A DNA stretch of 64,000 bases from Amphibalanus amphitrite. Taxonomy: Eukaryota; Arthropoda; Thecostraca; Balanomorpha; Balanidae. Made by a program: the position numbers and the translations under genes. Under the pieces are notes generated by a model. That model did no database searches. It was not told the DNA's origin and saw only the letters and a program-made list of their open reading frames with translations. This document shows positions 19,585 to 44,575 of the stretch, in pieces (position 1 is the stretch's first letter; every line of letters starts with the position of its first letter). The stretch covers positions 62,001-126,000 of the forward strand of contig NW_024882713.1 of the NCBI RefSeq assembly GCF_019059575.1, given 5' to 3'.

Positions 19585-19670
19585 ACGTCTGTCAAACTAG
19601 CAGCGAGCAGCGAGCAGCGAGTCCAGCAGCGAGAAACGGGCCATCCCGATTTAGCTGAAATTTGGCTCAC
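19585..19670. repeat. Left terminal inverted repeat of the fold-back element
   Basis: Its reverse complement is found at 44,490-44,575 with a single difference (T versus C at the sixth base). Contains tandem AGCAGCG and the GAGTCCAGCAGCGAG end block. Confidence 0.88.
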
Positions 19671-21075
19671 AGAGCCTTCTCAGCACGCTGATTCCGAAAA
19701 TCATGGTCTCTAGGGTGGAAATATTGACCGTTCTCGAGATAGAACCCTCTAAAGTTCTTACCATCCATGACCGGGCCATCCCGATTTGGCTGAAAATTGG
19801 CTCACAGAGCCTTCTCAGCACGCTGATTCCGAAAATCATGGTCTCTAGGGTGGAAATATTGACCGTTCTCGAGATAGAACCCTCTAAAGTTCTTACCATC
19901 CATGACCGGGCCATCCCGATTTGGCTGAAAATTGGCTCACAGAGCCTTCTCAGCACGCTGATTCCGAAAATCATGGTCTCTAGGGTGGAAATATTGACCG
20001 TTCTCGAGATAGAACCCTCTAAAGTTCTTACCATCCATGACCGGGCCATCCCGATTTGGCTGAAATTTGGCTCACAGAGCCTTCTCAGCACGCTGATTCC
20101 GAAAATCATGGTCTCTAGGGTGGAAATATTGACCGTTCTCGAGATAGAACCCTCTAAAGTTCCTACCATCCATGACCGGGCCATCCCGATTTGGCTGAAA
20201 ATTGGCTCACAGAGCCTTCTCAGCACGCTGATTCCGAAAATCATGGTCTCTAGGGTGGAAATATTGACCGTTCTCGAGATAGAACCCTCTAAAGTTCTTA
20301 CCATCCATGACCGGGCCATCCCGATTTGGCTGAAAATTGGCTCACAGAGCCTTCTCAGCACGCTGATTCCGAAAATCATGGTCTCTAGAATGGAAATATT
20401 GACCGTTCTCGAGATAGAACCCTCTAAAGTTCTTACCATCCATGACCGGGCCATCCCGATTTGGCTGAAAATTGGCTCACAGGGCCTTCTCAGCACGCTG
20501 ATTCCGAAAATCATGGTCTCTAGGGTGGAAATATTGACCGGTCCCGAGATAGAACCCTCTAAAGTTCTTACCACCCATGACCGGGCCATCCCGATTTGGC
20601 TGAAAATTGGCTCACAGAGCCTTCGCAACACGGTGAATCCGAAAATCATGATCTCAAGGGTGGAAATATTGACCGTTCTCGAGATAGAACCCTCTAAAGT
20701 TCTTACCACCCATGACCGGGCCATCCCGATTTGGCTGTAAATTGGCTCACAGAGCCTTCTCAGCACGCTGATTCCGAAAATCATGGTCTCTAGAATGGAA
20801 ATATTGACCGTTCTCGAGATAGAACCCTCTAAAGTTCTTACCATCCATGACCGGGCCATCCCGATTTGGCTGAAAATTGGCTCACAGAGCCTTCTCAGCA
20901 CGCTGATTCCGAAAATCATGGTCTCTAGGGTGGAAATATTGACCGTTCTCGAGATAGAACCCTCTAAAGTTCTTACCACCCATGACCGGGCCATCCCGAT
21001 TTTGCTTAAAATTGGCTCACAGAGCCTTCTCCAGCACGCTGATTCCGAAAATCATGGTCTCTAGGGTGGAAATTT
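19640..21075. repeat. 135-bp satellite, left arm (inverted orientation)
   Basis: Roughly eleven monomers, each with GGCCATCCCGATTTGGCTGA, GGTCTCTAGGGTGGAAATAT and TTCTCGAGATAGAACCCTCT words. It is the reverse complement of the right-arm monomer. Divergence is higher near the centre of the element (20,380-21,075). Confidence 0.95.
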
Positions 21076-24000
21076 TGAGGGTTCTATCTCGAGAACGGTC
21101 AATATTTCCAACCTATAGACCATGATTTACGGAATCAGCGTGCTGAGAAGGCTCTGTGAGCCATTTTTCAGCCAAATCGGGATGGCCCGGTCATGGGTGG
21201 TAAGAACTTTAGAGGGTTCTATCTCGAGAACGGTCCATATTTCCACCCTAGAGACCATGATTTTCGGAATCAGCGTGCTGAGAAGGCTCTGTGAGCCAAT
21301 TTTCAGCCAAATCGGGATGGCCCGGTCATGGGTGGTAAGAACTTTAGAGGGTTCTATCTCGAGAACGGTCAATATTTCCACCCTAGAGACCATGATTTTC
21401 GGAATCAGCGTGCTGAGAAGGCTCTGTGAGCCAATTTTCAGCTAAATCGGGATGGCCCGGTCATGGGTGGTAAGAACTTTAGAGGGTTCTATCTCGAGAA
21501 CGGTCAATATTTCCACCCTAGAGACCATGATTTTCGGAGTCAGCGTGCTGAGAAGGCTCTGTGAGCCAAATTTCAGCTAAATCGAAATGGCCCGTTTCTC
21601 GCTGCTGGACTCGCTGCGAGGGTTCTATCTCGAGAACGGTCAATATTTCCACCCTAGAGACCATGATTTTCGGAATCAGCGTGCTGGGAAGGCTCTGTGA
21701 GCCAATTTTCAGCCAAATCGGGATGGCCCGGTCATGGGTGGTAAGAACTTTAGAGGGTTCTATCTCGAGAACGGTCAATATTTCCACCCTAGAGACCATG
21801 ATTTTCGGAATCAGCGTGTTGAGAAGGCTCTGTGAGCCAAATTTCAGCTAAATCGGGATGGCCCGTTTCTCGCTGCGAGGGTTCTATCTCGAGAACGGTC
21901 AATATTTCCACCCTAGAGACCATGATTTTCGGAATCAGCGTGCTGAGAAGGCTCTGTGAGCCAATTTTCAGCCAAATCGGGATGGCCCGGTCATTAATGG
22001 TAAGAACTTTAGAGGGTTCTATCTCGAGAACGGTCAATATTTCCACCCTAGAGACCATGATTTTCGGAATCAGCGTGCTGAGAAGGCTCTGTGAGCCAAT
22101 TTTCAGCCAAATCGGGATGGCCCGGTCATGGATGGTAAGAACTTTAGAGGGTTCTATCTCAAGAACGGTCAATATTTCCACCCTAGAGACCATGATTTTC
22201 GGAATCAGCGTGCTGGGAAGGCTCTGTGAGCCAATTTTCAGCCAAATCGGGATGGCCCGGTCATGGGTGGTAAGAACTTTAGAGGGTTCTATCTCGAGAA
22301 CGGTCAATATTTCCACCCTAGAGACCATGATTTTCGGAATCAGCGTGTTGAGAAGGCTCTGTGAGCCAAATTTCAGCTAAATCGGGATGGCTCGTTTCTC
22401 GCTGCGAGGGTTCTATCTCGAGAACGGTCAATATTTCCACCCTAGAGACCATGATTTTCGGAATCAGCGTGCTGAGAAGGCTCTGTGAGCCAATTTTCAG
22501 CCAAATCGGGATGGCCCGGTCATGGATGGTAAGAACTTTAGAGGGTTCTATCTCGAGAACGGTCAATATTTCCACCCTAGAGACCATGATTTTCGAAATC
22601 AGCGTGCTGAGAAGGCTCTGTGAGCCAAATTTCAGCTAAATCGGGATGGCCCGTTTCTCGCTGCTGGACTCGCTGCGAGGGTTCTATCTCGAGAACGGTC
22701 AATATTGCCACCCAAGAGACCATGATTTTCGGAATCAGCGTGCTGAGAAGGCTCTGTGAGCCAATTTTCAGCCAAATCGGGATGGCCCGGTCATGGGTGG
22801 TAAGAACTTTAGAGGGTTCTATCTCGAGAACGGTCAATATTTCCACCCTAGAGACCATGATTTTCGGAATCAGCGTGTTGAGAAGGCTCTGTGAGCCAAA
22901 TTTCAGCTAAATCGGGATGGCCCGTTTCTCGCTGCGAGGGTTCTATCTCGAGAACGGTCAATATTTCCACCCTAGAGACCATGATTTTCGGAATCAGCGT
23001 GCTGAGAAGGCTCTGTAAGCCAATTTTCAGCCAAATCGGGATGGCCCGGTCATGGATGGTAAGAACTTTAGAGGGTTCTATCTCGAGAACTGTCAATATT
23101 TCCACCCTAGAGACCATGATTTTCGGAATCAGCGTGCTGAGAAGGCTCTGTGAGCCAATTTTCAGCCAAATCGGGATGGCCCGTTTCTCGCTGCTGGACT
23201 CGCTGCGAGGGTTCTATCTCGAGAACGGTCAATATTTCCACCCAAGAGACCATGATTTTCGGAATCAGCGTGCTGAGAAGGCTCTGTGAGCCAATTTTCA
23301 GCCAAATCGGGATGGCCCGGTCATGGATGGTAAGAACTTTAGAGGGTTCTATCTCAAGAACGGTCAATATTTCCACCCTAGAGACCATGATTTTCGGAAT
23401 CAGCGTGCTGGGAAGGCTCTGTGAGCCAATTTTCAGCCAAATCGGGATGGCCCGGTCATGGGTGGTAAGAACTTTAGAGGGTTCTATCTCGAGAACGGTC
23501 AATATTTCCACCCTAGAGACCATGATTTTCGGAATCAGCGTGTTGAGAAGGCTCTGTGAGCCAAATTTCAGCTAAATCGGGATGGCCCGTTTCTCGCTGC
23601 GAGGGTTCTATCTCGAGAACGGTCAATATTTCCACCCTAGAGACCATGATTTTCGGAATCAGCGTGCTGAGAAGGCTCTGTGAGCCAATTTTCAGCCAAA
23701 TGGGGATGGCCCGGTCATGGGTGGTAAGAACTTTAGAGGGTTCTATCTCGAGAACGGTCAATATTTCCACCCTAGAGACCATGATTTTCGGAATCAGCGT
23801 GTTGAGAAGGCTCTGTGAGCCAAATTTCAGCTAAATCGGGATGGCCCGTTTCTCGCTGCGAGGGTTCTATCTCGAGAACGGTCAATATTTCCACCCTAGA
23901 GACCATGATTTTCGGAATCAGCGTGCTGAGAAGGCTCTGTGAGCCAATTTTCAGCCAAATCGGGATGGCCCGGTCATGGATGGTAAGAACTTTAGAGGGT

Positions 24001-27000
24001 TCTATCTCAAGAACGGTCAATATTTCCACCCTAGAGACCATGATTTTCGGAATCAGCGTGCTGAGAAGGCTCTGTGAGCCAATTTTCAGCCAAATCGGGA
24101 TGGCCCGGTCATGGATGGTAAGAACTTTAGAGGGTTCTATCTCGAGAACGGTCAATATTTCCACCCTAGAGACCATGATTTTCGGAATCAGCGTGCTGAG
24201 AAGGCTCTGTGAGCCAATTTTCAGCCAAATCGGGATGGCCCGGTCATGGATGGTAAGAACTTTAGAGGGTTCTATCTCGAGAACGGTCAATATTTCCACC
24301 CTAGAGACCATGATTTTCGGAATCAGCGTGCTGAGAAGGCTCTGTGAGCCAATTTTCAGCCAAATCGGGATTGCCCGGTCATGGGTGGTAAGAACTTTAG
24401 AGGGTTCTATCTCGAGAACGGTCAATATTTCCACCCTAGAGACCATGATTTTCGGAATCAGCGTGTTGAGAAGGCTCTGTGAGCCAAATTTCAGCTAAAT
24501 CGGGATGGCCCGTTTCTCGCTGCGAGGGTTCTATCTCGAGAACGGTCAATATTTCCACCCTAGAGACCATGATTTTCGGAATCAGCGTGCTGAGAAGGCT
24601 CTGTGAGCCAATTTTCAGCCAAATCGGGATGGCCCGGTCATGGATGGTAAGAACTTTAGAGGGTTCTATCTCGAGAACGGTCAATATTTCCACCCTAGAG
24701 ACCATGATTTTCGGAATCAGCGTGCTGAGAAGGCTCTGTGAGCCAATTTTCAGCCAAATCGGGATGGCCCGGTCATGGATGGTAAGAACTTTAGAGGGTT
24801 CTATCTCGAGAACGGTCAATATTTCCACCCTAGAGACCATGATTTTCGGAATCAGCGTGCTGAGAAGGCTCTGTGAGCCAATTTTCAGCCAAATCGGGTC
24901 ATGGGTGGTAAGAACTTTAGAGGGTTCTATCTCGAGAACGGTCAATATTTCCACCCTAGAGACCATGATTTTCGGAATCAGCGTGCTGAGAAGGCTCTGT
25001 AAGCCAATTTTCAGCCAAATCGGGATGGCCCGGTCATGGATGGTAAGAACTTTAGAGGGTTCTATATCGAGAACTGTCAATATTTCCACCCTAGAGACCA
25101 TGATTTTCGGAATCAGCGTGCTGAGAAGGCTCTGTGAGCCAATTTTCAGCCAAATCGGGATGGCCCGTTTCTCGCTGCTGGACTCGCTGCGAGGGTTCTA
25201 TCTCGAGAACGGTCAATATTTCCACCCAAGAGACCATGATTTTCGGAATCAGCGTGCTGAGAAGGCTCTGTGAGCCAATTTTCAGCCAAATCGGGATGGC
25301 CCGGTCATGGATGGTAAGAACTTTAGAGGGTTCTATCTCAAGAACGGTCAATATTTCCACCCTAGAGACCATGATTTTCGGAATCAGCGTGCTGGGAAGG
25401 CTCTGTGAGCCAATTTTCAGCCAAATCGGGATGGCCCGGTCATGGGTGGTAAGAACTTTAAAGGGTTCTATCTCGAGAACGGTCAATATTTCCACCCTAG
25501 AGACCATGATTTTCGGAATCAGCGTGTTGAGAAGGCTCTGTGAGCCAAATTTCAGCTAAATCGGGATGGCCCGTTTCTCGCTGCGAGGGTTCTATCTCGA
25601 GAACGGTCAATATTTCCACATTAGAGACCATGATTTTCGGAATCAGCGTGCTGAGAAGGCTCTGTGAGCCAATTTTCAGCCAAATCGGGATGGCCCGGTC
25701 ATGGATGGTAAGAACTTTAGAGGGTTCTATCTCGAGAACGGTCAATATTTCCACCCTAGAGACCATGATTTTCGCAATCAGCGTGCTGAGAAGGCTCTGT
25801 GAGCCAATTTTCAGCCAAATCGGGATGGCCCGGTCATGGATGGTAAGAACTTTAGAGGGTTCTATCTCGAGAACGGTCAATATTTCCACCCTAGAGACCA
25901 TGATTTTCGGAATCAGCGTGCTGAGAAGGCTCTGTGAGCCAAATTTCAGCCAAATCGGGATGGCCCGGTCATGGATGGTAAGAACTTTAGAGGGTTCTAT
26001 CTCAAGAACGGTCAATATTTCCACCCTAGAGACCATGATTTTCGGAATCAGCGTGCTGAGAAGGCTCTGTGAGCCAATTTTCAGCCAAATCGGGATGGCC
26101 CGGTCATGGATGGTAAGAACTTTAGAGGGTTCTATCTCGAGAACGGTCAATATTTCCACCCTAGAGACCATGATTTTCGGAATCAGCGTGCTGAGAAGGC
26201 TCTGTGAGCCAATTTTCAGCCAAATCGGGATGGCCCGGTCATGGATGGTAAGAACTTTAGAGGGTTCTATCTCGAGAACGGTCAATATTTCCACCCTAGA
26301 GACCATGATTTTCGGAATCAGCGTGCTGAGAAGGCTCTGTGAGCCAATTTTCAGCCAAATCGGGATGGCCCGGTCATGGGTGGTAAGAACTTTAGAGGGT
26401 TCTATCTCGAGAACGGTCAATATTTCCACCCTAGAGACCATGATTTTCGGAATCAGCGTGCTGAGAAGGCTCTGTGAGCCAATTTTCAGCCAAATCGGGA
26501 TGGCCCGTTTCTCGCTGCTGGACTCGCTGCGAGGGTTCTATCTCGAGAACGGTCAATATTTCCACCCAAGAGACCATGATTTTCGGAATCAGCGTGCTGA
26601 GAAGGCTCTGTGAGCCAATTTTCAGCCAAAGCGGGATGGCCCGGTCATGGATGGTAAGAACTTTAGAGGGTTCTATCTCGAGAACGGTCAATATTTCCAC
26701 CCTAGAGACCATGATTTTCGGAATCAGCGTGCTGAGAAGGCTCTGTGAGCCAATTTTCAGCCAAATCGGGATGGCCCGGTCATGGATGGTAAGAACTTTA
26801 GAGGGTTCTATCTCAAGAACGGTCAATATTTCCACCCTAGAGACCATGATTTTCGGAATCAGCGTGCTGGGAAGGCTCTGTGAGCCAATTTTCAGCCAAA
26901 TCGGGATGGCCCGGTCATGGGTGGTAAGAACTTTAGAGGGTTCTATCTCGAGAACGGTCAATATTTCCACCCTAGAGACCATGATTTTCGGAATCAGCGT

Positions 27001-30000
27001 GTTGAGAAGGCTCTGTGAGCCAAATTTCAGCTAAATCGGGATGGCTCGTTTCTCGCTGCGAGGGTTCTATCTCGAGAACGGTCAATATTTCCACCCTAGA
27101 GACCATGATTTTCGGAATCAGCGTGCTGAGAAGGCTCTGTGAGCCAATTTTCAGCCAAATCGGGATGGCCCGGTCATGGATGGTAAGAACTTTAGAGGGT
27201 TCTATCTCGAGAACGGTCAATATTTCCACCCTAGAGACCATGATTTTCGAAATCAGCGTGCTGAGAAGGCTCTGTGAGCCAAATTTCAGCTAAATCGGGA
27301 TGGCCCGTTTCTCGCTGCTGGACTCGCTGCGAGGGTTCTATCTCGAGAACGGTCAATATTGCCACCCAAGAGACCATGATTTTCGGAATCAGCGTGCTGA
27401 GAAGGCTCTGTGAGCCAATTTTCAGCCAAATCGGGATGGCCCGGTCATGGGTGGTAAGAACTTTAGAGGGTTCTATCTCGAGAACGGTCAATATTTCCAC
27501 CCTAGAGACCATGATTTTCGGAATCAGCGTGTTGAGAAGGCTCTGTGAGCCAAATTTCAGCTAAATCGGGATGGCCCGTTTCTCGCTGCGAGGGTTCTAT
27601 CTCGAGAACGGTCAATATTTCCACCCTAGAGACCATGATTTTCGGAATCAGCGTGCTGAGAAGGCTCTGTAAGCCAATTTTCAGCCAAATCGGGATGGCC
27701 CGGTCATGGATGGTAAGAACTTTAGAGGGTTCTATCTCGAGAACTGTCAATATTTCCACCCTAGAGACCATGATTTTCGGAATCAGCGTGCTGAGAAGGC
27801 TCTGTGAGCCAATTTTCAGCCAAATCGGGATGGCCCGTTTCTCGCTGCTGGACTCGCTGCGAGGGTTCTATCTCGAGAACGGTCAATATTTCCACCCAAG
27901 AGACCATGATTTTCGGAATCAGCGTGCTGAGAAGGCTCTGTGAGCCAATTTTCAGCCAAATCGGGATGGCCCGGTCATGGATGGTAAGAACTTTAGAGGG
28001 TTCTATCTCAAGAACGGTCAATATTTCCACCCTAGAGACCATGATTTTCGGAATCAGCGTGCTGGGAAGGCTCTGTGAGCCAATTTTCAGCCAAATCGGG
28101 ATGGCCCGGTCATGGGTGGTAAGAACTTTAGAGGGTTCTATCTCGAGAACGGTCAATATTTCCACCCTAGAGACCATGATTTTCGGAATCAGCGTGTTGA
28201 GAAGGCTCTGTGAGCCAAATTTCAGCTAAATCGGGATGGCCCGTTTCTCGCTGCGAGGGTTCTATCTCGAGAACGGTCAATATTTCCACCCTAGAGACCA
28301 TGATTTTCGGAATCAGCGTGCTGAGAAGGCTCTGTGAGCCAATTTTCAGCCAAATCGGGATGGCCCGGTCATGGATGGTAAGAACTTTAGAGGGTTCTAT
28401 CTCGAGAACGGTCAATATTTCCACCCTAGAGACCATGATTTTCGGAATCAGCGTGCTGAGAAGGCTCTGTGAGCCAATTTTCAGCCAAATCGGGATGGCC
28501 CGGTCATGGATGGTAAGAACTTTAGAGGGTTCTATCTCGAGAACGGTCAATATTTCCACCCTAGAGACCATGATTTTCGGAATCAGCGTGCTGAGAAGGC
28601 TCTGTGAGCCAAATTTCAGCCAAATCGGGATGGCCCGGTCATGGATGGTAAGAACTTTAGAGGGTTCTATCTCAAGAACGGTCAATATTTCCACCCTAGA
28701 GACCATGATTTTCGGAATCAGCGTGCTGAGAAGGCTCTGTGAGCCAATTTTCAGCCAAATCGGGATGGCCCGGTCATGGATGGTAAGAACTTTAGAGGGT
28801 TCTATCTCGAGAACGGTCAATATTTCCACCCTAGAGACCATGATTTTCGGAATCAGCGTGCTGAGAAGGCTCTGTGAGCCAAATTTCAGCCAAATCGGGA
28901 TGGCCCGGTCATGGATGGTAAGAACTTTAGAGGGTTCTATCTCAAGAACGGTCAATATTTCCACCCTAGAGACCATGATTTTCGGAATCAGCGTGCTGAG
29001 AAGGCTCTGTGAGCCAATTTTCAGCCAAATCGGGATGGGCCGGTCATGGGTGGTAAGAACTTTAGAGGGTTCTATCTCGAGAACGGTCAATATTTCCACC
29101 CAAGAGACCATGATTTTCGGAATCAGCGTGCTGAGAAGGCTCTGTAAGCCAATTTTCAGCCAAATCGGGATGGCCCGGTCATGGATGGTAAGAACTTTAG
29201 AGGGTTCTATCTCGAGAACTGTCAATATTTCCACCCTAGAGACCATGATTTTCGGAATCAGCGTGCTGAGAAGGCTCTGTGAGCCAATTTTCAGCCAAAT
29301 CGGGATGGCCCGTTTCTCGCTGCTGGACTCGCTGCGAGGGTTCTATCTCGAGAACGGTCAATATTTCCACCCAAGAGACCATGATTTTCGGAATCAGCGT
29401 GCTGAGAAGGCTCTGTGAGCCAATTTTCAGCCAAATCGGGATGGCCCGGTCATGGATGGTAAGAATTTTAGAGGGTTCTATCTCAAGAACGGTCAATATT
29501 TCCACCCTAGAGACCATGATTTTCGGAATCAGCGTGCTGGGAAGGCTCTGTGAGCCAATTTTCAGCCAAATGGGGATGGCCCGGTCATGGGTGGTAAGAA
29601 CTTTAGAGGGTTCTATCTCGAGAACGGTCAATATTTCCACCCTAGAGACCATGATTTTCGGAATCAGCGTGTTGAGAAGGCTCTGTGAGCCAAATTTCAG
29701 CTAAATCGGGATGGCCCGTTTCTCGCTGCGAGGGTTCTATCTCGAGAACGGTCAATATTTCCACCCTAGAGACCATGATTTTCGGAATCAGCGTGCTGAG
29801 AAGGCTCTGTGAGCCAATTTTCAGCCAAATCGGGATGGCCCGGTCATGGATGGTAAGAACTTTAGAGGGTTCTATCTCAAGAACGGTCAATATTTCCACC
29901 CTAGAGACCATGATTTTCGGAATCAGCGTGCTGAGAAGGCTCTGTGAGCCAATTTTCAGCCAAATCGGGATGGCCCGGTCATGGATGGTAAGAACTTTAG

Positions 30001-32679: not shown

Positions 32680-32681
32680 AT

Positions 32682-32727: not shown

Positions 32728-33648
32728 ATGCCGGCGGACAGCGCACAGTCCGGCGCCGCAGCTCAAGACCCAGCCAGCGTTCCAGCTTCAGCCTCCGAGT
32801 CAACTCATCGGCCCATGGCTAGCTTCCGGCTACCACCATACTCTCCGGAAGAGCCCGACCTGTGGCTACTGCAGGTGCAGTGCGCTTTCGACGTCAGCGG
32901 GGTCGACTCCGACGAGCTGAGGTTTAAGCTCCTCGTCGCAAACCTCCCCGCCAACATCGCCGTCCAGGTCAAGGACGTCATCCGGTCATCTCGGTCTTTT
33001 GACGTGCTGTGTGCAGCGCTCCAAGCCCGCCTGGCACAGTCACGCGCCGACCGACTACAAGCCCTGCTCGGCCGCCAACAGCTCGGCGATCAGAAGCCGA
33101 CGGCGCTGTTGCGCTCAATGCGCAACGAGCTAGCCGCAGCCGGGGACGCCCCGGTTGATACGGAGCTCTTCCGTACCCTATTTCAACAACGGCTACCGCA
33201 GCCCGTCCGTGCTGCCCTCGCCCTCCTGCCAGCCGACAGCACGCTTGACGCACTGGCAGAAGCGGCCGACCGGTACCTGGAAGCTAGCGGACCCGACCCA
33301 CGGCTATCAGCGATCGCGGCACAGCCGTACACACAGCCGGCACCGCCCATCGCTGCTGCAGTGACAGCCCCAGCGCCAGCTGCAACCCCTGCGCTGGACA
33401 CCGTCATCGCCTCCCTGGTCGCTAAGATGGAGCGCCTGGAGGCCAGCAACCGACGACTCGAGGACGCCGTGCGACGCGACCGCAGCCGTTCCCGGCCGCG
33501 CCAAGCGTCTCGCCAGTCACGCCGCCCGTCACCGGCTCGTCCTTCAACGCCGCCGCACGACGACACGCTGTGTTGGTACCACCAGCGATTCGGCGCCCAA
33601 GCGCGCCGATGCAAGTTGCCGTGCTCCTGGATCGCCTCGGAAAACTGA
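32728..33648 (+). CDS. Gag of the gypsy element
   Basis: 306 codons, intact. The N-terminal half has capsid-like sequence (F-LP-Y--E-P-LWL at about 30-50, typical of CsRn1/Kabuki-type Gag). The C terminus is basic and holds one zinc knuckle of the unusual form C-x3-H-x9-C-x3-C (CWYH...CKLPC, about residues 282-299) instead of CCHC. It overlaps pol by about 79 bases, pol being in the -1 frame, so Gag-Pol would need ribosomal frameshifting in 33,570-33,648. Ala- and Arg-rich, GC-rich codon use. Confidence 0.88.
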
Positions 33649-35813
33649 GGCGCCCCGTGCTAATGGCGCAAAGCACGGGCGCCCCTCCTGCCGCGCCACT
33701 ACTCTTCGTGAGGGACACGGAGACGGACCGGCAATTTCTAGTCGACACCGGGGCGCAGGTCAGCGTGCTGCCTCGCCGCTGCCTGCCCAACGGGTCTACG
33801 CTGACCCCTGCTCCTGTCGGCCAGCAGCTCGTCGCGGCAAACGGCTCACCGATCGCGGTGCACGGCACCTGCCTGCTGGACGTCACCTTGAGTCAGCAGC
33901 ACCGCCTGAAACATCGATTCTTCGTCACTGACGTCACCACACCCATCTTGGGCACCGACTTCCTGGCCGCACATCACCTCGTCGTGGACGTTGCCAACCA
34001 GCGTCTCCTGCGGAACGGCACCGTCTGCGCCAGCGCCGAGCGGTCAAGGCTGTGCTCCATCGGAGTGCGTCTCGTCCGGGAGCAGGCTGCTGCTCGCTTC
34101 GCAGCTGTCCTCGCCCGGTACCCGGATGTGACCTCACCAAAACCTGGACCAACACCGGTGAAGCACAACGTGACGCACCACATCGTCACCAAGGGTCCAC
34201 CGGTGTACCAGCGGCCACGACGCCTCCCGCCGGAGCGCCTTCAAATCGCACGTGCTGAGTTCAACAAGATGCTCCAGCAAGGCATCATTCGACCGTCGAG
34301 CAGCAGCTGGACAACTCCACTCCACATGGTGCCAAAGAAGAGACCCGGCGAGTGGCGTCCTTGCGGCGACTACAGAGCGCTGAACGCCCGCACCGTACCA
34401 GACCGCTACCCGCTGCCGTACCTGCGGGACTTTTCAGCCGACCTGCATGGGTGCACCGTCTTCAGCACCATTGACTTGGTGAAGGCCTACCACCAGATCC
34501 CGGTGGAACCTGCCGACGTCCCCAAGACAGCCATCACGACACCGTTCGGCCTCTACGAATACGTTCGGATGCCGTTCGGCCTCAGAAACGCCGGACAGAC
34601 CTTCCAGCGTTTCATGGATGAGGTCCTCCGCGGCATACCGGGCTGCTTCGTCTACCTGGACGACATTCTGCTGGCCAGCCCGACTGCCGAACACCACCTG
34701 CAGCTCCTGGACCAAGTGCTTCAGCGCCTCAACACCTACGGCGTCGTCGTCAACAGGCACAAGTGCGTCCTGGGACAGGAGCAGGTGGTGTTCCTCGGCC
34801 ACTCGGTAGACGCCGACGGCGTCCGCCCGCTGCCTGGACGAGTCGAGGCCATCAAAGACTTCCCGGAACCGACCACTCAGTCCCAGCTACGGAGGTTCCT
34901 GGGGATGGTAGCCTACTACCACCGCTTCATCCCCCAGGCAGCCGAGCTCCTGCAGCCTCTGCACGCCTTAATCACCCACAAGGCAAAACGCTCGAGAGCG
35001 CCTGTCACGTGGACAGACTCGGCGCGGCAGCGTTTCAAGAACGTCAAGGACGCCCTGGCCACGGCGACACATCTCGCACACCAAGTCCCGGACGCGCCGC
35101 TCGCCCTCTTCGTCGACGCCTCGGACTGCGGAGTGGGCGCCGTCCTCCAACAGCACGTAGCTGGCGAATGGCAGCCGCTAAGCTTCTTCTCCAAGACGCT
35201 TCAACCTGCAGAGAAGAAGTACAGCACCTTCGGGCGCGAGCTGCTCGCTATCTACCTGGCCGTCCGGCACTTCAAGCACGCCATCGAAGGCCGGTCGGCA
35301 ATCGTCTTTACAGACCACCGCCCGCTGGTAACGGCCATCGGCTCCTCGTCCGACCGCTACTCGCCACGAGAGGTCCGCCACCTGGACTACATCGGCCAGT
35401 TCGTGTCTGACATCCGCCATGTGCCTGGCAAGGACAACGTGGTCGCCGACACGCTGTCACGCACGGTCTCGATGGTGGCCCAGCCGCGACCCCCGCTCGC
35501 CGACTTCACTGCCATCGCCAAGGCCCAGTCCGAAGACGGCTCGCTGGAAGACCTCGAGGCCTTAGACACCTCACTGCGCCTGCGCCACATTCCGGTCGGC
35601 GATGGACTCCGTCTGCTCTGCGACGAGTCCACCGGATCGCCTCGGCCGGTCCTCCCAGAGGCGCTGCGCCGGCCCTTCGCCAAGGCTCTGCACGACCTGT
35701 CGCACCCTGGCGTCGAGGCCACCGTCAAGCTCGTCTCTAAGCGGTTCGTCTGGCCCGGTATGGATCGCGACGTGCGCCGCTGGACCCGAACCTGCCTCGC
35801 CTGTCAGCGCTGC
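33570..35813 (+). CDS. Pol of the gypsy element, N-terminal part (PR-RT-RH-integrase zinc finger)
   Basis: The open frame starts in the gag overlap; no ATG needs to be used if made by frameshift. Domains in order: aspartic protease with [12 protein letters not shown] (about residues 57-68); reverse transcriptase with YPLP, STIDL-KAYHQI, and catalytic VYLDD (about 361-365); RNase H with LFVDASD, Glu in STFGRELLA and FTDHRPLV; then the integrase HHCC zinc finger (H...H at SHPGV region, CLACQRC). The frame is cut after the Cys codon at 35,811-35,813 by the poly-T end of a minus-strand LINE. Broken copy; described only. Confidence 0.92.
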
Positions 35814-35814
35814 A

Positions 35815-38495
35815 TTTTTTTTTTTTTTTTTTTTTTTTGAATTTTGCTCCCGACAGGCCGAGGCCCTGGTCGGGGTAGGGGGAAGTTACTAGCTGGCAAT
35901 TAGCCAGATCTTCCGTTTTACTTTACTTTAATGCCGGCTATGTTATTCCGGCCCAAGACAATATTAAGAACAAAGTTTACGTTAGCCCGGCTCATGTGAC
36001 GTCCGGTGGAAGCAAGTGCAAGGGAAAGCCAGAAAGGGTGCCAGAGTGGCAGCGCCGAGAGGGATTTTGAGTACTTACATTTCTTGCTGCTGAATCTTGA
36101 TGCTGATATGTGGTAGTGTTGTAATGTGTGATGTTGTTGTGTTGTGAGTTCCACCAGGAAAGTCCTAACTAGAAAAACCTGGTGCCTATCTTAGAGGGCA
36201 AAACCTGTGCGCTTTTGCCAAATTGCACAGGAAAAATCCCTTTGCTTTGATATTACGTTACGTTATATCGCTAATGTGTAAGTGTGTTTGTGGAGCTATG
36301 TGTCTCGAGTGGGCCTCAACCTTTAAGAGGGATCCCTGTCGAGAACCGCGAGAGGGATGGGCAGTTGCCGATTGCCGCCGCCGCCGCCGGAGGGACGCAA
36401 ACGCGCGCGCTCGCAAACATAGACGAAATCACGGCACAACAAGAACAATGGAAACAAAAACAATTACGATGAAACCACGAGAGAAACCAAGAGAAACCAA
36501 GAAAAACCAAGAGAAAATCATGTGTCCAAGGAGTTGGGGGAGGAGCCCACCGCCGCGTGCTAATGGTCCCCGCGGCGGCGGCTGGTGCCCGTAAGCTCGG
36601 GGCTCCTACAAAACCCCCACCAAGTGCTGACTGGTATGATTAGAGAACTGACGTTTCAGTGCTGACTCCAGTGACGTAACAATCCATTAAACGGGTCGTT
36701 GCGGACGGCATAGTGCCGACACCTCTTTCTCCAAGCAGATGGGGGGCAGAGGAGCCCGCCGCCGCGTGCCAATGGTCCCCGCGGCGGCGGCTGGTGCCCG
36801 TAAGCTCGGGGCTCCTTAATTGACATGGCCAGTATCCAGGAAATCAAAAAGATTGAGTCCCGCGCCCAGAACCGCTATCGACGGCTGGCCGACCACGGAA
36901 CTGAGCGCGAGACTGTGCTATATGGATCGGTCTAGCCTGGAATTCTTTAGGAAAGAGAAAAGCAAGTCGAGTAGATCCGGGTGAGAATCGCCGAGGAGAG
37001 TAGGAATTGAAAGTGCAAGTTGGTTGTGGGTGATATATTGGATTATAGGTTGCCTCTCTGCTTGATATTGGGGACAGTGGATCAAGAAGTGTTCAATTGT
37101 GTATCTTATGTTACAACGTTGGCAGATTGGAGGGGGGCCTTGATCAAAGATATATTCATGTGTCAATTTAGTATGTCCGATTCTAAGTCTGGCTATAATT
37201 ACTTCTTTAAGCCGGGTATTTTGATAAGCAGTCGACCAGTGTCCGATAATTGGTTTGATTGGGTGAAAGTAGTAATGTGGATTTACGTCCCATTCAAACT
37301 GGACATACTTTTTGTAGGACGTGTAAATGACATTAAGATAATCTGATACCGGACATGGGAGGGAGTTATTGGGGGGATCTCGGAGGCTGGCTTTGGCCGC
37401 TTTGTCCGCGCGCTCATTCCCCACAATATTCGCGTGACCGGGTATCCAGATTATCTTAATTTCTCTGTTTTGGTCGGTGATTCGATTAATTTGTCTTTTA
37501 ATGTCTCGCGTGATTGGGTGCGAATCATTATGGGCCGCTGCGATTGATTGCACTGCTGCCTTGGAATCAGTACAAATCATTAGTTGTCTATCAGGTTTGT
37601 TGATTACGTGTCGAAGCGCTGCACTGATTGCGTAGAGTTCGGCCGAAAAGATGGAGTGGTTATCGGAGAGGCGGGTGGATTGTGCGAATCCTTTTATATA
37701 GAAGGCGGCTCCGGTCTTGTTGTCCGCCCGAGAGCCGTCTGTGTATATAAAAGTATGGTCTTTATGGTCGTTTTGGAATTCGAGGAAAAGTTGTTTCATT
37801 TCATCAGTGTTCATGTCTTTTTTGTTGTCATCGAAGAGGATGAGGGTTTGGATGGGGTGCCTAGTCCAGTACGGGCTCAGTGGAGGGTTATCTAGAACCT
37901 TTGGAGTTTCTATTTTATAGTCCCTAAGTATGTTTTTAAGGTGTCTTCTTATTGTTTGGTACTTGTATTCTCTATGTGTTATTATGTTATTTTCTGGTAG
38001 GTTACTGAGTATAGCGTATGGTATTGTATCTTTTCTTGCCATTACTTTCGTGTAATACCTTATAAGCTGGTATTCTCTTCTTCTTTCCAAAGGAGGAATG
38101 TTTGAATCAACACGGAGATTCGATGAAGGCGAAGTGCGGAGTGCGCCAGAAATAATGCGAAGAGCGGAATTCTGGATACTCTCGACCTTGTTACTGAGAG
38201 TAGTGGATATATTTGTTAGTAAAAAGGCATTATAATCCAAGATGGATCGAATCAGAGATGTATATAGAAGTGTCAGTGTTTTTCTGTCGGCGCCCCAGTG
38301 TGAACCAGAGATACATTTCATGATGTTGAGGCGCCGGGTGCACCTTCCTGTGATGTCTGCTATGTGTTGTGTGAAAGTGAGTCCCCTGTCCAGTGTGATG
38401 CCTAGATATTTAAAGGTATTTGTTTGCGGAATCTCAACCCGGCCCAAACGGAGCGGGCGTGGAGGTGTGGGGTGTCTGCGTTGTTTGGAAAAGGT
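35815..38495 (-). mobile_element. 5'-truncated Jockey-like LINE inside gypsy pol
   Basis: Minus-strand insertion with its poly-A tail appearing as T24 at 35,815-35,838. It carries the end of ORF2 (reverse transcriptase thumb, RNase H, CCHC) and a long 3' UTR. A 67-bp direct repeat occurs in the 3' UTR (36,541-36,607 and 36,750-36,816). The 5' boundary is approximate (38,490-38,496). No target site duplication is evident. Confidence 0.88.
36918..38494 (-). pseudogene. LINE ORF2 fragment (RT C-terminus, RNase H)
   Basis: Open from about 38,494 but lacking everything before the reverse-transcriptase thumb, so the endonuclease and the catalytic YADD are missing. Visible are the post-catalytic NTFKYLGITLD motif; an RNase H domain with FIYTDGS (first Asp), FSAELYAI (Glu), ICTDSKAA (Asp) and IPGHANIVGNERAD (His/Asp); and a terminal C-x2-C...H-x4-C knuckle in CQRCNIRYTIEHFLIHC. 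This architecture fits the Jockey superfamily. Truncated by incomplete reverse transcription. Confidence 0.88.
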
Positions 38496-39617
38496 ATCGG
38501 CCGGCACACCAAGTCTGACGTCGGCACCTTCCAGCCACCTCAGCAACGCTTCGACCACGTCCACGTGGACCTCGTCGGCCCGATGCCTCCGTCAAGAGGG
38601 CACTCGTACCTCCTGACGTGCGTCGACCGGTTCACTCGGTGGCCAGAAGCCATCCCTCTGCCGGACATCCGCACCACCACGGTCGCCCGCGCCTTCCTCG
38701 AGCACTGGGTCGCCCGATTCGGCGTTCCGTCCATCATCACGACGGACCGAGGCGCCCAGTTCGAGTCGGCCCTCTGGTCGGAGCTACAGCGATTCCTGGG
38801 CTGCCAGCGAACTCGGACGACGTCCTACCACCCGGCCTGCAACGGTATGGTGGAACGCCTGCATCGCCAGCTGAAGGCCAGCCTCCGTGCACACCAGGCT
38901 ACGTCATGGACGGACGTGCTGCCGCTGGTGCTCCTGGGCATACGCTCCACCATCAAGGCGGACCTGCAGGCGACGTCAGCCGAGCTGGTGTACGGCTCCT
39001 CACTGCGGCTTCCCGGCGAGTTCTTCACCAGCAGCCAAGCCTCACCAGCATCACCGGCCGGTTTCGTACAAGACCTGAAGCGCGCCATGTCTCAGGTGCG
39101 GCCGACACTCCCACGTCCGGTCCAGCGCGCCACGTACGTCCCGACGGCACTCCAGACGGCGACACACGTCTTCGTGCGCAGGGACTGTCACCGCTACCCG
39201 CTGGACGCTCCATACGACGGACCGTTCCCGGTTACCGAAAGGACCACCAAAACCATCACCATCGACCGTCGACAGAAAAAGGAGGTCATCAGCATCGACC
39301 GGTGTAAGGCCGCCTTCCTGGAGACACCAGACGAATCCGGTCATCGACAGTCTGACCTGCCGACTGTGCAGCCGCACGGTACTCAGTCCAGCGGCCCGCC
39401 GGCCGCGCCACCGCTCAGCAATGAGCCCAGCGGCCCGGAGCTTCTGATCTACGGTGACGCACCAACTCGCCCTGCAGCCGTCGCTCGGGCTGACGCTGCA
39501 CCATTGCAGCCTCAGCCGATACTACGGACGACCCGCTCCGGCCGCGTCGTACGACCTCCGGTGAGATATCGCCATGTCACTTTTGTCCGCGACATGTCTG
39601 GCGAGGGGGTACTGTAG
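38496..39617 (+). CDS. Pol of the gypsy element, C-terminal part (integrase core)
   Basis: The reading resumes at IGRHTKSDVGTF after the LINE. The integrase DDE core is visible: DLVGPMP (first Asp), TTDRGAQFE (second Asp), and Glu in NGMVERLHRQLK about 35 residues on. A C-terminal chromatin/DNA-binding region and Pro-rich tail follow. The TAG stop at 39,615-39,617 lies inside the first bases of the second LTR. Separated from the upstream part by about 2.7 kb of LINE. Confidence 0.9.
   Translation: MGRHTKSDVGTFQPPQQRFDHVHVDLVGPMPPSRGHSYLLTCVDRFTRWPEAIPLPDIRTTTVARAFLEHWVARFGVPSIITTDRGAQFESALWSELQRFLGCQRTRTTSYHPACNGMVERLHRQLKASLRAHQATSWTDVLPLVLLGIRSTIKADLQATSAELVYGSSLRLPGEFFTSSQASPASPAGFVQDLKRAMSQVRPTLPRPVQRATYVPTALQTATHVFVRRDCHRYPLDAPYDGPFPVTERTTKTITIDRRQKKEVISIDRCKAAFLETPDESGHRQSDLPTVQPHGTQSSGPPAAPPLSNEPSGPELLIYGDAPTRPAAVARADAAPLQPQPILRTTRSGRVVRPPVRYRHVTFVRDMSGEGVL
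39600..39612 (+). other. Polypurine tract of the gypsy element
   Basis: GGCGAGGGGGTAC directly before the second LTR; expected plus-strand primer site by position and composition. Confidence 0.65.
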
Positions 39618-39881
39618 GGATCATCTATGCGATTTGTCATTTCATATTGTCATTTTCATTTATATTGTCACCGCTTTATTAATCAATCTGTTACCTGTTG
39701 TCAATTGCGCGTCAAGTTTGTTTGCCATTTGTAAACCGGCCTGCCGCTGGCCTCAACCTTTCTAGTAACCGCTGTGCCATACGCTATGGAACGTGTCGTG
39801 CAAAGGTCACGGCGGCACCCCTGAGGCGGCCGCTGCCCGTACGTTTAGGAGCCCATTGTCGTGACGTCATGACTGTGAGCA

Positions 39882-42205
39882 TTTTTTTTTTTTTTTTTTT
39901 TTTTTTATTTTTTTTTTAATTTTGTCTTCCCGGCATGCCTAAGGCAACCGCCAGGGAAGGGGAAATTACTAAGGCTGGCAATGAGCCAGATCTTTCGTTT
40001 TACTTTACTTTACTGTCAGCTATTTAATTCTGACCCAAGCAAGAGAGAGAAGCAAACTTTACTTTAATTCGGCTCATGTGGCGTCCGATTAACAAGGCAA
40101 GGGTGTCCAGAAAGGGGTAGAATATTCATACTTGCTGCTGTAAATCTTGCTGCTGATGGTGTGAGGTGTTGCAATGTGTGATGTTTGTTGTGGGATGTAT
40201 TTACCAGGAAAAGTCCTAACTAGAAAAAACCTGGTGCCTAAGTCAAGGGGCAAAAACTGTCGAGTACAGTAAAAATCCCCGCAATAGTTACGTTACGTTA
40301 TATCTCTAATGTGGACAGTGAAAGTGTGATTGCGCAGGCTGTTCGCAGGGATCGGCCAAAATAAAAACCGGCCTACCGAGTGAGACAGCCAGCGGGTTAT
40401 GGCAGCCGGTGTGACCCGGGTGCCCCAGTCATGTCCCGCCCGTCTCAGGGGTACAACTTTGACTGGAATTTGGTGGCTCTGGAGGAGTAGCCGTGAGGCA
40501 TAGCTCGACTCCTAGGCAGCGATGTTGGTAGGGCTAGTGGTTACCCGTTGGAGGAATTCTCTGAAGGAAGATACGGCGTCCGTGGTGAGGGGGTCCGTCA
40601 AAATAGAAGCCAGCCACGGCTGCCCTGTACGCTTTGGATTCTGGGCGAAGGTCAAGGTCGTATAGTCGGATTTCATGGTCAAACCAGTAGAGGGTGGAGG
40701 GAGGGTAGGAAAGTCGCCTGCCGCTGGCGTACTCAAACTTCAGCGACCCGATGTCAGGTGGAGGGATCTCACCCCTGGGACGTCTCTTCGGGATCAGGTC
40801 TGGATCGGGATCGTCGGTGTCGTTTCGGGGGCTGTCAGGCTGGAAGCTCGCCGTGTAGCCTCGGGTGAACGGCCTGCTTCGAGAGCAGCCGAAGTCGTCG
40901 GGGTCCGTGGTTGGTGTCGGTGAGTCGGGGGTGTCAGTCTGGACTTCGGCAGAGACCAGTCGGGCGGGTCGAGTTTGAGAGGTCGAGTCGAAGGTGGTCA
41001 GTTTGGTCGTTTGGGTGCTGGCGTCGGTCGTCTGAGAGCTGGCTGTCTCGGTCTGGGTCTGAACAGGGACTGCGGTCGCCTTAGGGGCCATGACCTCACC
41101 ATCTGTCTGGACAGAGGCGTCTGTGCGAGCCGGAGGGGGCTGCATCGTTCGGTGCTGACTCTCAAGTGGAGGCCAAGCTGTGGAGTTGAGCGGCGGGGGT
41201 TGGAATGGCGCTCGCTCTCGAGTGTCTCGTTTGGTGGTTTTCCAGACGGGGCAGCTGTTTCGGTCCCATGCTGGGTGTGGACCAGAGCAGAGAGGGCACT
41301 TTGGGACCGAGGTACAGTCACCTGTGGGGTGGCTGTCCCTGGCAGAGCACTGCCCGCAGACTGTCTCTTTTCGTCGGCAAGAGCGCATGGAGTGGCCTAG
41401 CTTCCAGCACCTACGGCATTGCCTTGGCAGCTGGATCCAGGGTCGAACAGGGACGGAGAGGTACCCGCAGAGGAGCTTTCTTGGGAGATCGAGTCCTTTA
41501 AAGCGAAGTCGAATCAGGGGGTTTGGAGTTCGGTCCTTGGATTTGAGCCTCTGCACCTCGATAACACCCTGCGGGGCTAGTTCGGTGAGGAGCTCTTCGT
41601 CAGAGAGGTCGCTGAGGTCCGGACAGTGAATGAGACCCTGCGATGACATCAGGTTGGTTGCAAGAACAGCCGAAACAGGTTTTCCGAGCATGGTTTGGCA
41701 GGAGAGAAGGGCAGAGCTTTGGTCTTTGTTGAAGGTCGAGATGAGAATTTTGCCAGATCCGAGTTGTTTGGTTTTTTCGACTTCCGAGTCACAGATCGAG
41801 CGGATTTCCCTGATGATGGCGAACGGGTTCCCTCGCAGTGGAGTGCCATCAGGCCGGCTCATCAGGATGAGAGCGCGGCCTTCTGGTGGGTCAAGGTCGG
41901 GTGGGAGACGCGCCCCTGGAGGCGGTCCGGTCGAGTCCATGGCCATGATCGGGGTCTGTTACAGGCAAAGATAAATAGTCCGGTTCGTTATCACCGCTAG
42001 GTTTCCCCCGGACTGAGCAGTTATCCTAGATGACCTACCTACAGTCACATAGAGCAAAAAGAGCTGAAGGCTTACTCAAAGTTAGCGACCAAGGTCGTCC
42101 ATGGACGACCCTGGAGCTCAGTGAGGACACCGTGCGCTAACTGACGTGAAGCGTCGAACTGGTGCGTGAATATCGAAGAATCCAAGGTTTGCGCAGGAAG
42201 TCCTG
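39882..42205 (-). mobile_element. LINE-like element with ORF1 only, inside gypsy 3' LTR
   Basis: Poly-T at its plus-strand left end (39,882 onward) is the poly-A tail. It is flanked by a perfect 12-bp duplication TGACTGTGAGCA (39,870-39,881 and 42,206-42,217). It contains a 5' leader, one intact ORF1 and a 3' UTR whose last ~300 bp resemble those of the LINE at 35,815 (shared GCTGGCAAT, CCAGATCTTTCGTTTTACTT-type words). No ORF2 is present. Confidence 0.88.
40534..41946 (-). CDS. LINE ORF1 (Gag-like zinc-knuckle protein)
   Basis: 470 intact codons. N-terminal region (to about 170) without a named motif visible, probably RNA-recognition-like as in Jockey ORF1 (inference). Three zinc knuckles follow: C-x2-C-x4-H-x4-C at 177-190, C-x2-C-x5-H-x4-C at 197-211, and a CPLC...H...C at 217-232. 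The C-terminal half is Thr/Gln/Pro-rich and disordered-looking. Family role: nucleic-acid chaperone packaging the element RNA. The frame is intact although the element lacks its own reverse transcriptase. Confidence 0.85.
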   Translation of the reverse strand: MAMDSTGPPPGARLPPDLDPPEGRALILMSRPDGTPLRGNPFAIIREIRSICDSEVEKTKQLGSGKILISTFNKDQSSALLSCQTMLGKPVSAVLATNLMSSQGLIHCPDLSDLSDEELLTELAPQGVIEVQRLKSKDRTPNPLIRLRFKGLDLPRKLLCGYLSVPVRPWIQLPRQCRRCWKLGHSMRSCRRKETVCGQCSARDSHPTGDCTSVPKCPLCSGPHPAWDRNSCPVWKTTKRDTRERAPFQPPPLNSTAWPPLESQHRTMQPPPARTDASVQTDGEVMAPKATAVPVQTQTETASSQTTDASTQTTKLTTFDSTSQTRPARLVSAEVQTDTPDSPTPTTDPDDFGCSRSRPFTRGYTASFQPDSPRNDTDDPDPDLIPKRRPRGEIPPPDIGSLKFEYASGRRLSYPPSTLYWFDHEIRLYDLDLRPESKAYRAAVAGFYFDGPPHHGRRIFLQRIPPTGNH

Positions 42206-42915
42206 TGACTGTGAGCAAAGGTCGCGGTAGGGGCTCTCCCGGCAGCCGGACGGTGACTCATACGTTAAGCTTGTCTCTCGCCGCGCCTGCGGGCATATTG
42301 GTAGTACTAGGAACGGCCAGCATGTGACCGCGGTTTTCGGCGACATTGTCAATTCGTTTCTCGACTCTGCTGTTCGCTACAAGACAAATACACATAGAAA
42401 ACGGCTCGGGCATTTGGAGAAGAGCGGCTACTCTGAGGCGAGGGAAGAACACGGAGATTCACACAAACGACCTGACTAGGTTGCACCGGCCACAGTCGAC
42501 CGAGGTGGGCTTCCGCGCCCTTAAAGACGCCTCTGACTGGCCATTGCGCTGACACCCTGGTCGGACCACGGTCATTGATCGGACCCTGCCACTGGTTCGT
42601 GCTCAGGCTGCCTTAGCGGGTAGACCTGCTCGACCAGACGCCCCACTGGTGGGCGAGTGCTCGGTTCCGACTTTCACCGCCGGTCCAACAGCGTTCTGCT
42701 GGTTCCCGCCGATCCGGTTACGACACCGCAAGTGCCGTACCGACTCGGGCGTCCCAGGTGGGCGTAACGGTTACCACACCAGTTCGCGACCCCCAGGCTC
42801 TGTCAGCCGTCGTACGGCTCTCGGACGGACACTCTAATAGATCAGCCACAGATCAATAGGTTGTCACAGACCGTCCGTCCAGCCACGCGCTACCCACAGC
42901 GCAGTACGACACGGT

Positions 42916-44489
42916 CATGGGTGGTAAGAACTTTAGAGGGTTCTATCTCGAGAACGGTCAATATTTCCACCCTAGAGACCATGATTTTCGGAATCAGCGT
43001 GTTGAGAAGGCTCTGTGAGCCAAATTTCAGCTAAATCGGGATGGCCCGTTTCTCGCTGCGAGGGTTCTATCTCGAGAACGGTCAATATTTCCACATTAGA
43101 GACCATGATTTTCGGAATCAGCGTGCTGAGAAGGCTCTGTGAGCCAATTTTCAGCCAAATCGGGATGGCCCGGTCATGGATGGTAAGAACTTTAGAGGGT
43201 TCTATCTCGAGAACGGTCAATATTTCTACCCTAGAGACCATGATTTTCGGAATCAGCGTGCTGAGAAGGCTCTGTGAGCCAATTTTCAGCCAAATCGGGA
43301 TGGCCCGGTCATGGATGGTAAGAACTTTAGAGGGTTCTATCTCGAGAACGGTCAATATTTCCACCCTAGAGACCATGATTTTCGGAATCAGCGTGCTGAG
43401 AAGGCTCTGTGAGCCAAATTTCAGCCAAATCGGGATGGCCCGGTCATGGATGGTAAGAACTTTAGAGGGTTCTATCTCAAGAACGGTCAATATTTCCACC
43501 CTAGAGACCATGATTTTCGGAATCAGCGTGCTGAGAAGGCTCTGTGAGCCAATTTTCAGCCAAATCGGGATGGCCCGGTCATGGATGGTAAGAACTTTAG
43601 AGGGTTCTATCTCGAGAACGGTCAATATTTCCACCCTAGAGACCATGATTTTCGGAATCAGCGTGCTGAGAAGGCTCTGTGAGCCAATTTTCAGCCAAAT
43701 CGGGATGGCCCGGTCATGGATGGTAAGAACTTTAGAGGGTTCTATCTCGAGAACGGTCAATATTTCCACCCTAGAGACCATGATTTTCGGAATCAGCGTG
43801 CTGAGAAGGCTCTGTGAGCCAATTTTCAGCCAAATCGGGATGGCCCGGTCATGGGTGGTAAGAACTTTAGAGGGTTCTATCTCGAGAACGGTCAATATTT
43901 CCACCCTAGAGACCATGATTTTCGGAATCAGCGTGCTGAGAAGGCTCTGTGAGCCAATTTTCAGCCAAATCGGGATGGCCCGTTTCTCGCTGCTGGACTC
44001 GCTGCGAGGGTTCTATCTCGAGAACGGTCAATATTTCCACCCAAGAGACCATGATTTTCGGAATCAGCGTGCTGAGAAGGCTCTGTGAGCCAATTTTCAG
44101 CCAAAGCGGGATGGCCCGGTCATGGATGGTAAGAACTTTAGAGGGTTCTATCTCGAGAACGGTCAATATTTCCACCCTAGAGACCATGATTTTCGGAATC
44201 AGCGTGCTGAGAAGGCTCTGTGAGCCAATTTTCAGCCAAATCGGGATGGCCCGGTCATGGATGGTAAGAACTTTAGAGGGTTCTATCTCGAGAACGGTCA
44301 ATATTTCCACCCTAGAGACCATGATTTTCGGAATCAGCGTGCTGAGAAGGCTCTGTGAGCCAATTTTCAGCCAAATCGGGATGGCCCGGTCATGGATGGT
44401 AAGAACTTTAGAGGGTTCTATCTCGAGAACGGTCAATATTTCCACCCTAGAGACCATGATTTTCGGAATCAGCGTGCTGAGAAGGCTCT
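42916..44489. repeat. 135-bp satellite, right arm, right of gypsy
   Basis: Continuation of the array after the gypsy insertion, about twelve monomers in the same orientation as the left flank. It matches 25,441 onward at a constant shift of 17,475, including the rare CCACATTAGAGACC variant. Confidence 0.95.
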
Positions 44490-44575
44490 GTGAGCCAAAT
44501 TTCAGCTAAATCGGGATGGCCCGTTTCTCGCTGCTGGACTCGCTGCTCGCTGCTCGCTGCTAGTTTGACGGACGT
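44490..44575. repeat. Right terminal inverted repeat of the fold-back element
   Basis: Runs from the last satellite sequence through GCTGCTGGACTCGCTGCTCG to CTAGTTTGACGGACGT. Reverse complement of the left terminus with one mismatch. Confidence 0.88.

What the first reader, a model, noticed from the sequence alone, without database searches (positions are those of the whole stretch)
19585..44575. A whole satellite array packaged as one giant fold-back transposon
Near-perfect ~90-bp terminal inverted repeats (19,585-19,670 and 44,490-44,575) bound about 100 copies of a 135-bp repeat arranged in two opposed arms, and the same 9 bp (ACCGTACTT) sits just outside both ends. So this satellite is not an ordinary head-to-tail array: it looks like a transposition unit. 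Drosophila FB elements, with repeat-built arms and 9-bp duplications, are the closest known design; the monomer size and arm length here are much larger. The arms are very unequal (~1.5 kb and ~12.3 kb without the gypsy).
Basis: partly seen in the sequence, partly recalled or inferred. Interest (0 to 1): 0.88.

Follow-up and report, generated by a model that had tools for sequence, protein, structure and literature searches.

The report
Satellite arrays moving as foldback transposons
A block of about a hundred tandem repeats, arranged as two facing halves between matching ends, turns out to be one copy of a mobile DNA family whose whole repeat array jumps as a unit into new places in this animal genome.

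Summary
Confirmed and extended. Window 19585-44575 is a TIR element with a 9-bp target duplication, ACCGTACTT. It holds ~13.8 kb of inverted 135-bp arrays plus an 11.2-kb gypsy inserted later. The window lies in an 807.6-Mb eukaryotic assembly. I fetched 28 more copies with the same ends. All 29 are a plus array facing a minus array, with under 30 bp between the arms in 28 of 29. Exact 8-9 bp duplications flank 24 of 29; of 812 mismatched flank pairs only the two of one duplicated locus agree. Contig C58 holds an empty site with one ACCGTACTT. Two 2,740-bp copies are identical at different sites with different duplications. Longer-ended relatives extend the TIR 80 bp outward and make their own 9-bp duplications; a satellite-free relative shares those ends. 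So the array is a non-autonomous foldback transposon, not an ordinary satellite. No transposase with these ends was found; a Mutator-like one is inferred from the 9-bp duplications. New variant of a known kind (FB, Tetris, Galileo), unusual in lacking a loop and being almost only satellite.

The parts
19576..19584 (.). left target-site duplication ACCGTACTT
   Evidence: single copy at the empty site C58
19585..19636 (+). left unique terminal inverted repeat, short form (ACGTCTGTCAAACTAG..., 52 bp)
19637..21085 (+). left arm, 10.7 copies of the 135-bp monomer
21069..21085 (.). loopless centre; type A junction GGAAATNTTG/AGGGTTC shared with 11 other fetched copies
21069..31716 (-). right arm, inner part; about 80 monomer copies in inverted orientation with higher-order blocks
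21589..44546 (-). 12 copies of the inner TIR piece (GCAGCGAGTCCAGCAGCGAGAAACGGGCC): 11 inside the right arm and one at the true right end
31717..42911 (+). gypsy-type LTR retrotransposon inserted into the right arm (duplication CGGT at 31713-31716 and 42912-42915), itself carrying nested non-LTR insertions; not part of the foldback unit
42912..44523 (-). right arm, outer part; about 11-12 monomers
44524..44575 (-). right unique terminal inverted repeat
44576..44584 (.). right target-site duplication ACCGTACTT

Best explanation
This is one copy of a multicopy, non-autonomous foldback DNA transposon. A transposase supplied in trans recognises the unique ~50-bp ends, cuts out the whole inverted satellite unit and inserts it elsewhere with a 9-bp target duplication. 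Between the ends the element is almost nothing but a 135-bp tandem repeat in two opposed arms without a loop. Arms change length by duplication of multi-monomer blocks. Shown: ends, duplications, an empty site, movement of identical whole units, shared centre junctions at different sites, longer-ended relatives with their own 9-bp duplications, and a satellite-free relative with the same outer ends. Inferred: that the transposase is Mutator-like, that it acts in trans, that the short form arose when a cryptic end 80 bp inside the longer TIR was used, and that arms grow by unequal exchange or replication slippage.
For: Paired inverted ends and exact 8-9 bp duplications in 24 of 29 fetched copies: 21 of 9 bp, 3 of 8 bp. 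By the same rule 2 of 812 cross-element flank pairs match, both from one duplicated locus, L026/L027. Empty allele-like site C58 with one ACCGTACTT, collinear with the window's right flank in four pieces over 1.7 kb. L010 and L036: 2,740 bp, 0 mismatches, different flanks and duplications. Centre junction A in 12 of 29 copies, B in 7, C in 3, other 7 (corrected). Long form: 17 of 19 further pairs extend outward as inverted sequence; its own 9-bp duplications in 7 of 9 pairs, plus C599. C435: 1,623 bp, no satellite, outer 72 bp of its two ends alike at 67 positions and of the same family, 9-bp duplication. 2,362 monomer cores in the assembly, 1,255 of them in the 29 fetched copies.
Against: No transposase gene with these ends was found (one search lists 111 MULE-domain matches, 150 of 204 candidates scored; none within 20 kb of a listed end, compared by eye). 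Five of 29 copies have no duplication: C1202, L024, L033, L034, L037 (L033 and L034 are explained by swapped halves). Four further long-form copies looked at also lack an exact one: L090/L091, L098/L099, C59, and C263 whose left end is incomplete. The joined flanks of L036 gave no spanning match, but only 40 of 896 candidates were scored there, most of them the repeat at L010. One unnamed assembly only; no reads. The 28 fetched copies were chosen by best match to the window's own end, so they over-represent the short form.
Confidence: 0.92

Rival explanations
1. An ordinary satellite array that inverted internally; the flanking 9 bp match by chance.
For: Tandem 135-bp monomers with higher-order blocks, as in satellites.
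Against: The same ends and two-arm plan in 29 of 29 fetched copies, exact duplications in 24 of 29, and an empty site. No free head-to-tail array among the 12 arrays behind the 100 listed monomer places.
Confidence: 0.02
2. The arrays are foldback transposons, but the moving transposase belongs to another superfamily (for example P/Galileo, hAT or Merlin) rather than Mutator-like.
For: Long repeat-built TIRs also occur in Galileo, a P-superfamily element (PMC4168063, PMC3573991, passages). Three of 24 duplications here measure 8 bp.
Against: 21 of 24 short-form duplications are exactly 9 bp, as are the 7 found among 9 long-form pairs. Galileo duplications in D. willistoni are 7-8 bp (PMC4168063, passages). 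Tm1, a foldback family with 9-bp duplications, has a Phantom/Mutator-like transposase (PMC3169594, abstract).
Confidence: 0.25
3. The two-arm centre is an assembly artefact: palindromic mis-joining of one array.
For: Inverted repeats are prone to misassembly; only one assembly was available.
Against: One centre junction recurs in 12 copies (at up to 2 edits) with different flanks and arm lengths, and others recur 7 and 3 times. Small copies (0.92 and 1.74 kb) show the same plan.
Confidence: 0.03
4. The short form is not a mobile element of its own; ACGTC ends arose by decay of long-form ends.
For: The long form contains the short-form end entirely.
Against: Exact target duplications abut ACGTC itself in 24 of 29 fetched copies plus C265, and the window's empty site breaks exactly there.
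Confidence: 0.03

Closest known systems
Tetris (Drosophila virilis), PMC4079207; abstract, introduction, one results section and part 1 of 2 of the discussion read
   Same: Non-autonomous foldback; TIRs built from tandem repeats (~220 bp); 8-10 bp duplications; repeats also amplified to satellite-size arrays; no transposase found.
   Different: Tetris TIRs reach 1,735 bp with distinct outer and inner domains and a middle domain; three structurally complete copies. Here arms reach 12.3 kb, there is no middle domain, and 24 of 29 fetched copies keep target duplications. In Tetris the authors suggest large arrays may have disrupted transposition; here array-filled units keep intact duplications, and a 2.7-kb unit moved unchanged.
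Galileo, longest copy in D. willistoni (PMC4168063) and D. mojavensis copies (PMC3573991); passages read
   Same: Copies made almost only of long TIRs with tandem repeats (~140 bp in the 9,021-bp copy), inserted transposons inside the TIRs, and (in D. buzzatii) inversions made by ectopic recombination.
   Different: P superfamily, 7-8 bp duplications; direct tandem repeats in a single D. willistoni copy. Here 9-bp duplications and arrays in every satellite-type copy read.
Tm1 (Mutator/Foldback, Meloidogyne), PMC3169594; abstract, introduction and TIR section read
   Same: Composite TIRs of variable tandem motif number, 9-bp duplications, several internal types sharing the ends.
   Different: Motif C is 8-21 bp in 1-9 units per TIR; a transposase-bearing member is known.
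Drosophila FB elements (recalled; seen only in mentions in the papers above)
   Same: Repeat-built inverted arms, 9-bp duplications (recalled).
   Different: Short subrepeats and usually a loop; no 135-bp satellite arms (recalled).
miDNA4 / tandem-repeat-bearing MITEs (named in PMC12628747 and PMC9659126, passages)
   Same: A satellite carried inside a TIR element.
   Different: The satellite is internal, in one orientation, in a Tc1/mariner MITE, not two opposed arms (orientation recalled).

Membership tests
Foldback-type TIR transposon | Long inverted arms built from tandem repeats, variable in length between arms and copies | tested here: met
   29 of 29 copies
Foldback-type TIR transposon | Target-site duplication of about 9 bp on insertion | tested here: met
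   24 of 29 exact 8-9 bp; empty site with one copy
Foldback-type TIR transposon | Moves as one unit | tested here: met
   Identical 2,740-bp units at two sites with different duplications
Mutator-like (MULE) superfamily | 8-10 bp, usually 9 bp, target duplications | tested here: met
   21 of 24 are 9 bp in the short form; the 7 found among 9 long-form pairs are 9 bp
Mutator-like (MULE) superfamily | Autonomous member with a MULE transposase and the same ends | tested here: inconclusive
   111 PF10551 matches, none within 20 kb of a listed end; only 100 of 214 outer ends listed
P superfamily (Galileo) | 7-8 bp duplications | tested here: not met
   21 of 24 are exactly 9 bp
P superfamily (Galileo) | P-type transposase with THAP domain | not tested
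   No search made
Classical satellite DNA | Long head-to-tail arrays independent of transposon ends | tested here: not met
   In a sample only: 12 of 12 arrays behind the 100 listed places (of 2,362) carry a family end; 11 of 12 hold both orientations. Collapsed heterochromatic arrays cannot be excluded

The most novel reading that the evidence does not exclude
The family carries nested, alternative transposition ends: an outer end (GCGTATATTC) and, 80 bp inside both arms, a look-alike (ACGTCTGTC) that has become a working end of its own. Shedding the outer TIR released a lineage whose arms then grew into satellites (up to 12 kb here) that still move. Chimeric monomers repeatedly carry the inner TIR piece through the arms and may act as extra transposase-binding sites. 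On this reading the satellite is maintained by transposition and lives only inside transposons.
Probability: 0.35. Interest if true: 0.75.

Novelty: new variant of a known kind. Interest (0 to 1): 0.6.

Why it matters
How satellites spread to scattered sites is an open question, and the Tetris case linking them to foldback elements rested on three complete copies. Here one genome shows family members from 0.92 kb to one with 13.8 kb of arrays with intact ends, whole-unit moves, an empty site, and a satellite-free relative with the same ends. That makes 'satellites as mobile cargo' directly testable. A pair of copies with swapped duplications suggests that the elements may also rearrange chromosomes.

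Tried and rejected
Ordinary satellite with chance flanking match: rejected. Nested insertion of a short element into a palindrome to explain the long form: rejected, since the outer sequence is inverted rather than directly repeated, and the long form has its own 9-bp duplications. Gypsy as the cargo or transposase source: rejected; it is a separate insertion with a CGGT duplication. Homogenisation between the arms of one element: not supported; within-element arm similarity (median 0.9785) is about that between elements (0.9733). A target-site motif: none above 0.13 bit per position in 27 sites. The coding potential of the inserts in C1746/C1285/C1202 (3.1-5.6 kb) was looked at only as open frames, with no clear transposase by eye; no domain search was made on them. 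Species: not identified; a barnacle was guessed from GC content and assembly size alone, and the passages read did not confirm it. The protein search of a neighbouring gene gave two unnamed hits. The flank control printed (0 of 812) was wrong: it compared 8-mers at an offset that cannot see 9-bp duplications; one search repeats it with the rule used for the copies themselves and replaces it. Type A in L034 was a false match and was dropped. A TIR length of 83 bp noted for C435 included flank letters; one search gives about 72 bp. A second empty-site search, an allele test of the C162 inversion and a search for satellite-free ends did not complete.

Full report
Observation. The unique TIR is 52 bp; beyond it each arm is satellite. 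The element is 24,991 bp, of which 11,195 bp is a gypsy-type element with a CGGT duplication, leaving about 13.8 kb. The arms meet with no loop at 21069-21085.

Family. The window is G000:C1216:62001-126000 of an 807.6-Mb eukaryotic assembly. The outer 23-bp pattern occurs 92 times forward and 91 reverse at up to 3 mismatches, against 3 and 0 for the reversed control. I fetched 28 further copies, those with best-scoring ends. With the window that is 29 copies, counting two contigs of one site (C1746/C1285) and one duplicated locus (L026/L027) twice. All 29 are a plus array followed by a minus array. The gap between the arms is under 30 bp in 28, and about 300 bp in L038. Sizes run from 2.2 kb upward; six copies other than the window carry inserted or non-satellite stretches in or between the arms. 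Monomer hits total 1,288.

Target duplications. Exact duplications of 8-9 bp abut the ends in 24 of 29 (21 of 9 bp, 3 of 8 bp); none in C1202, L024, L033, L034 or L037. By the same rule, among 812 wrong pairings of left and right flanks only L026 with L027 match (2 pairings), which are one duplicated locus. A first version of this control was faulty and is withdrawn.

Empty site. Joining the window flanks and searching the genome gave C58:902726-903047, 93% identical across the join. Its sequence has one ACCGTACTT and no element. The window's right flank matches C58 in four collinear pieces (96, 91, 89 and 95%) over about 1.7 kb, with other insertion differences, as an allele or an old duplicate would. 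In one search, 39 of 44 matches were copies of the repeat into which L010 inserted, spanning its join without the element. The third joined site in that query, L036, gave no spanning match; only 40 of 896 candidates were scored, so this says little.

Movement as one unit. L010 (C62) and L036 (C583) are 2,740 bp with no difference, in different surroundings, with duplications GTCTGAAGT and TCAATAAAT. Centre junctions are shared: type A in 12 copies including the window, B in 7, C in 3, other in 7 (corrected).

Inversion signature. L033 and L034, on C162 about 308 kb apart and inverted to each other, differ at one base in 8,190. Neither has a duplication, but their halves are swapped: CGGAATTTA and TGTAAAACT each match when the copies exchange halves. 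Among all left-left and right-right comparisons only this pair and the two contigs of one site matched. This is what recombination between two inverted copies leaves; a misassembly between identical repeats would look the same.

Long form. In 19 further pairs, one (C265) has a 9-bp duplication at ACGTC, one (C462) 6 bp, and 17 continue outward as inverted sequence. In C599 the outer TIR adds 80 bp, starts GCGTATATTCG and has its own duplication TACTGAAAT. In nine other long-form pairs, seven have 9-bp duplications and two do not; C263 lacks the first bases on one side, and C59 has no exact duplication. The outer pattern occurs at 112 + 102 places, control 0. The two termini resemble each other (RCGTMTRTY), which suggests a cryptic internal end; that is inference. 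Long copies can be tiny: C59 is 922 bp with six monomer hits including partial ones, and C599 1,740 bp with twelve.

Satellite-free relative. C435 is 1,623 bp, has no monomer hit, and its two ends agree at 67 of the outer 72 positions and carry the same outer sequence, with the duplication CTGCCGCCG. L101 (C43) carries the same type of internal sequence. So the ends mobilise different cargoes.

Where the satellite lives. The monomer core occurs 1,133 + 1,229 times (control 0), about 0.3 Mb; 1,255 of the 2,362 are in the 29 fetched copies. The 100 listed places fall in 12 arrays. Ten are bounded by known ends on both sides; C46 ends in a long-form TIR on its right (its left border was not reached); C19 is a broken remnant with one end. 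Places not listed were not examined, and heterochromatic arrays missing from the assembly cannot be excluded.

Array growth. The window's right arm has higher-order structure: an 11-unit block occurs twice, and chimeric monomers carrying the inner TIR piece recur. This points to duplication of multi-monomer blocks that once reached the terminus.

Transposase. PF10551 has 111 matches in the genome with 150 of 204 candidates scored; 13 of them lie in stop-free frames of 457-514 aa. By eye, none lies within 20 kb of a listed end, but only 100 of 214 outer ends and 100 of 183 inner ends were listed. The Mutator assignment therefore rests on duplication length and on the precedent of Tm1 (abstract read).

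Literature. Tetris, Galileo and Tm1 are the nearest relatives in design. Searches listed no paper whose title or abstract start describes loopless satellite-only foldbacks in two terminus forms; only open-licence papers are held and most listed papers were not opened, so this is weak evidence of novelty.

Noticed in passing
monomer motif GACCGGGCC; window 31713-31716, C1285, C1746, C1202, L025, L038: Several unrelated insertions into the arrays (gypsy, two TIR elements with apparent 8-9 bp duplications, the L025 insert, the start of the L038 centre) sit at the same GACCGGGCC stretch of the 135-bp monomer; the L014 insert lies elsewhere.
   Followed up: partly
G000:C162, copies at 407423-415612 and 723662-731851: Swapped target-duplication halves between two inverted, near-identical copies: a possible 308-kb inversion, or a misassembly.
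   Followed up: partly
C1285/C1746 insert a: An inserted element with 33-bp TIRs that itself contains about 371-bp tandem repeats: a second TIR element carrying a tandem array.
   Followed up: no
window 35815-38600 and 39882-42205: Two apparent non-LTR retrotransposon insertions (poly-T start, minus strand; one with an RNase H domain) inside the gypsy.
   Followed up: partly
window 59805-60875 (+): A glutamine-rich frame ending in a cysteine-rich stretch that looks like the PHD finger of Additional sex combs (recalled, not tested).
   Followed up: no
window 45525-45667 and 46398-46856; L029 flank: Other local tandem arrays beside the element, with TTAGG-like repeats at window 45525-45667 and in the joined flank of L029.
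   Followed up: no
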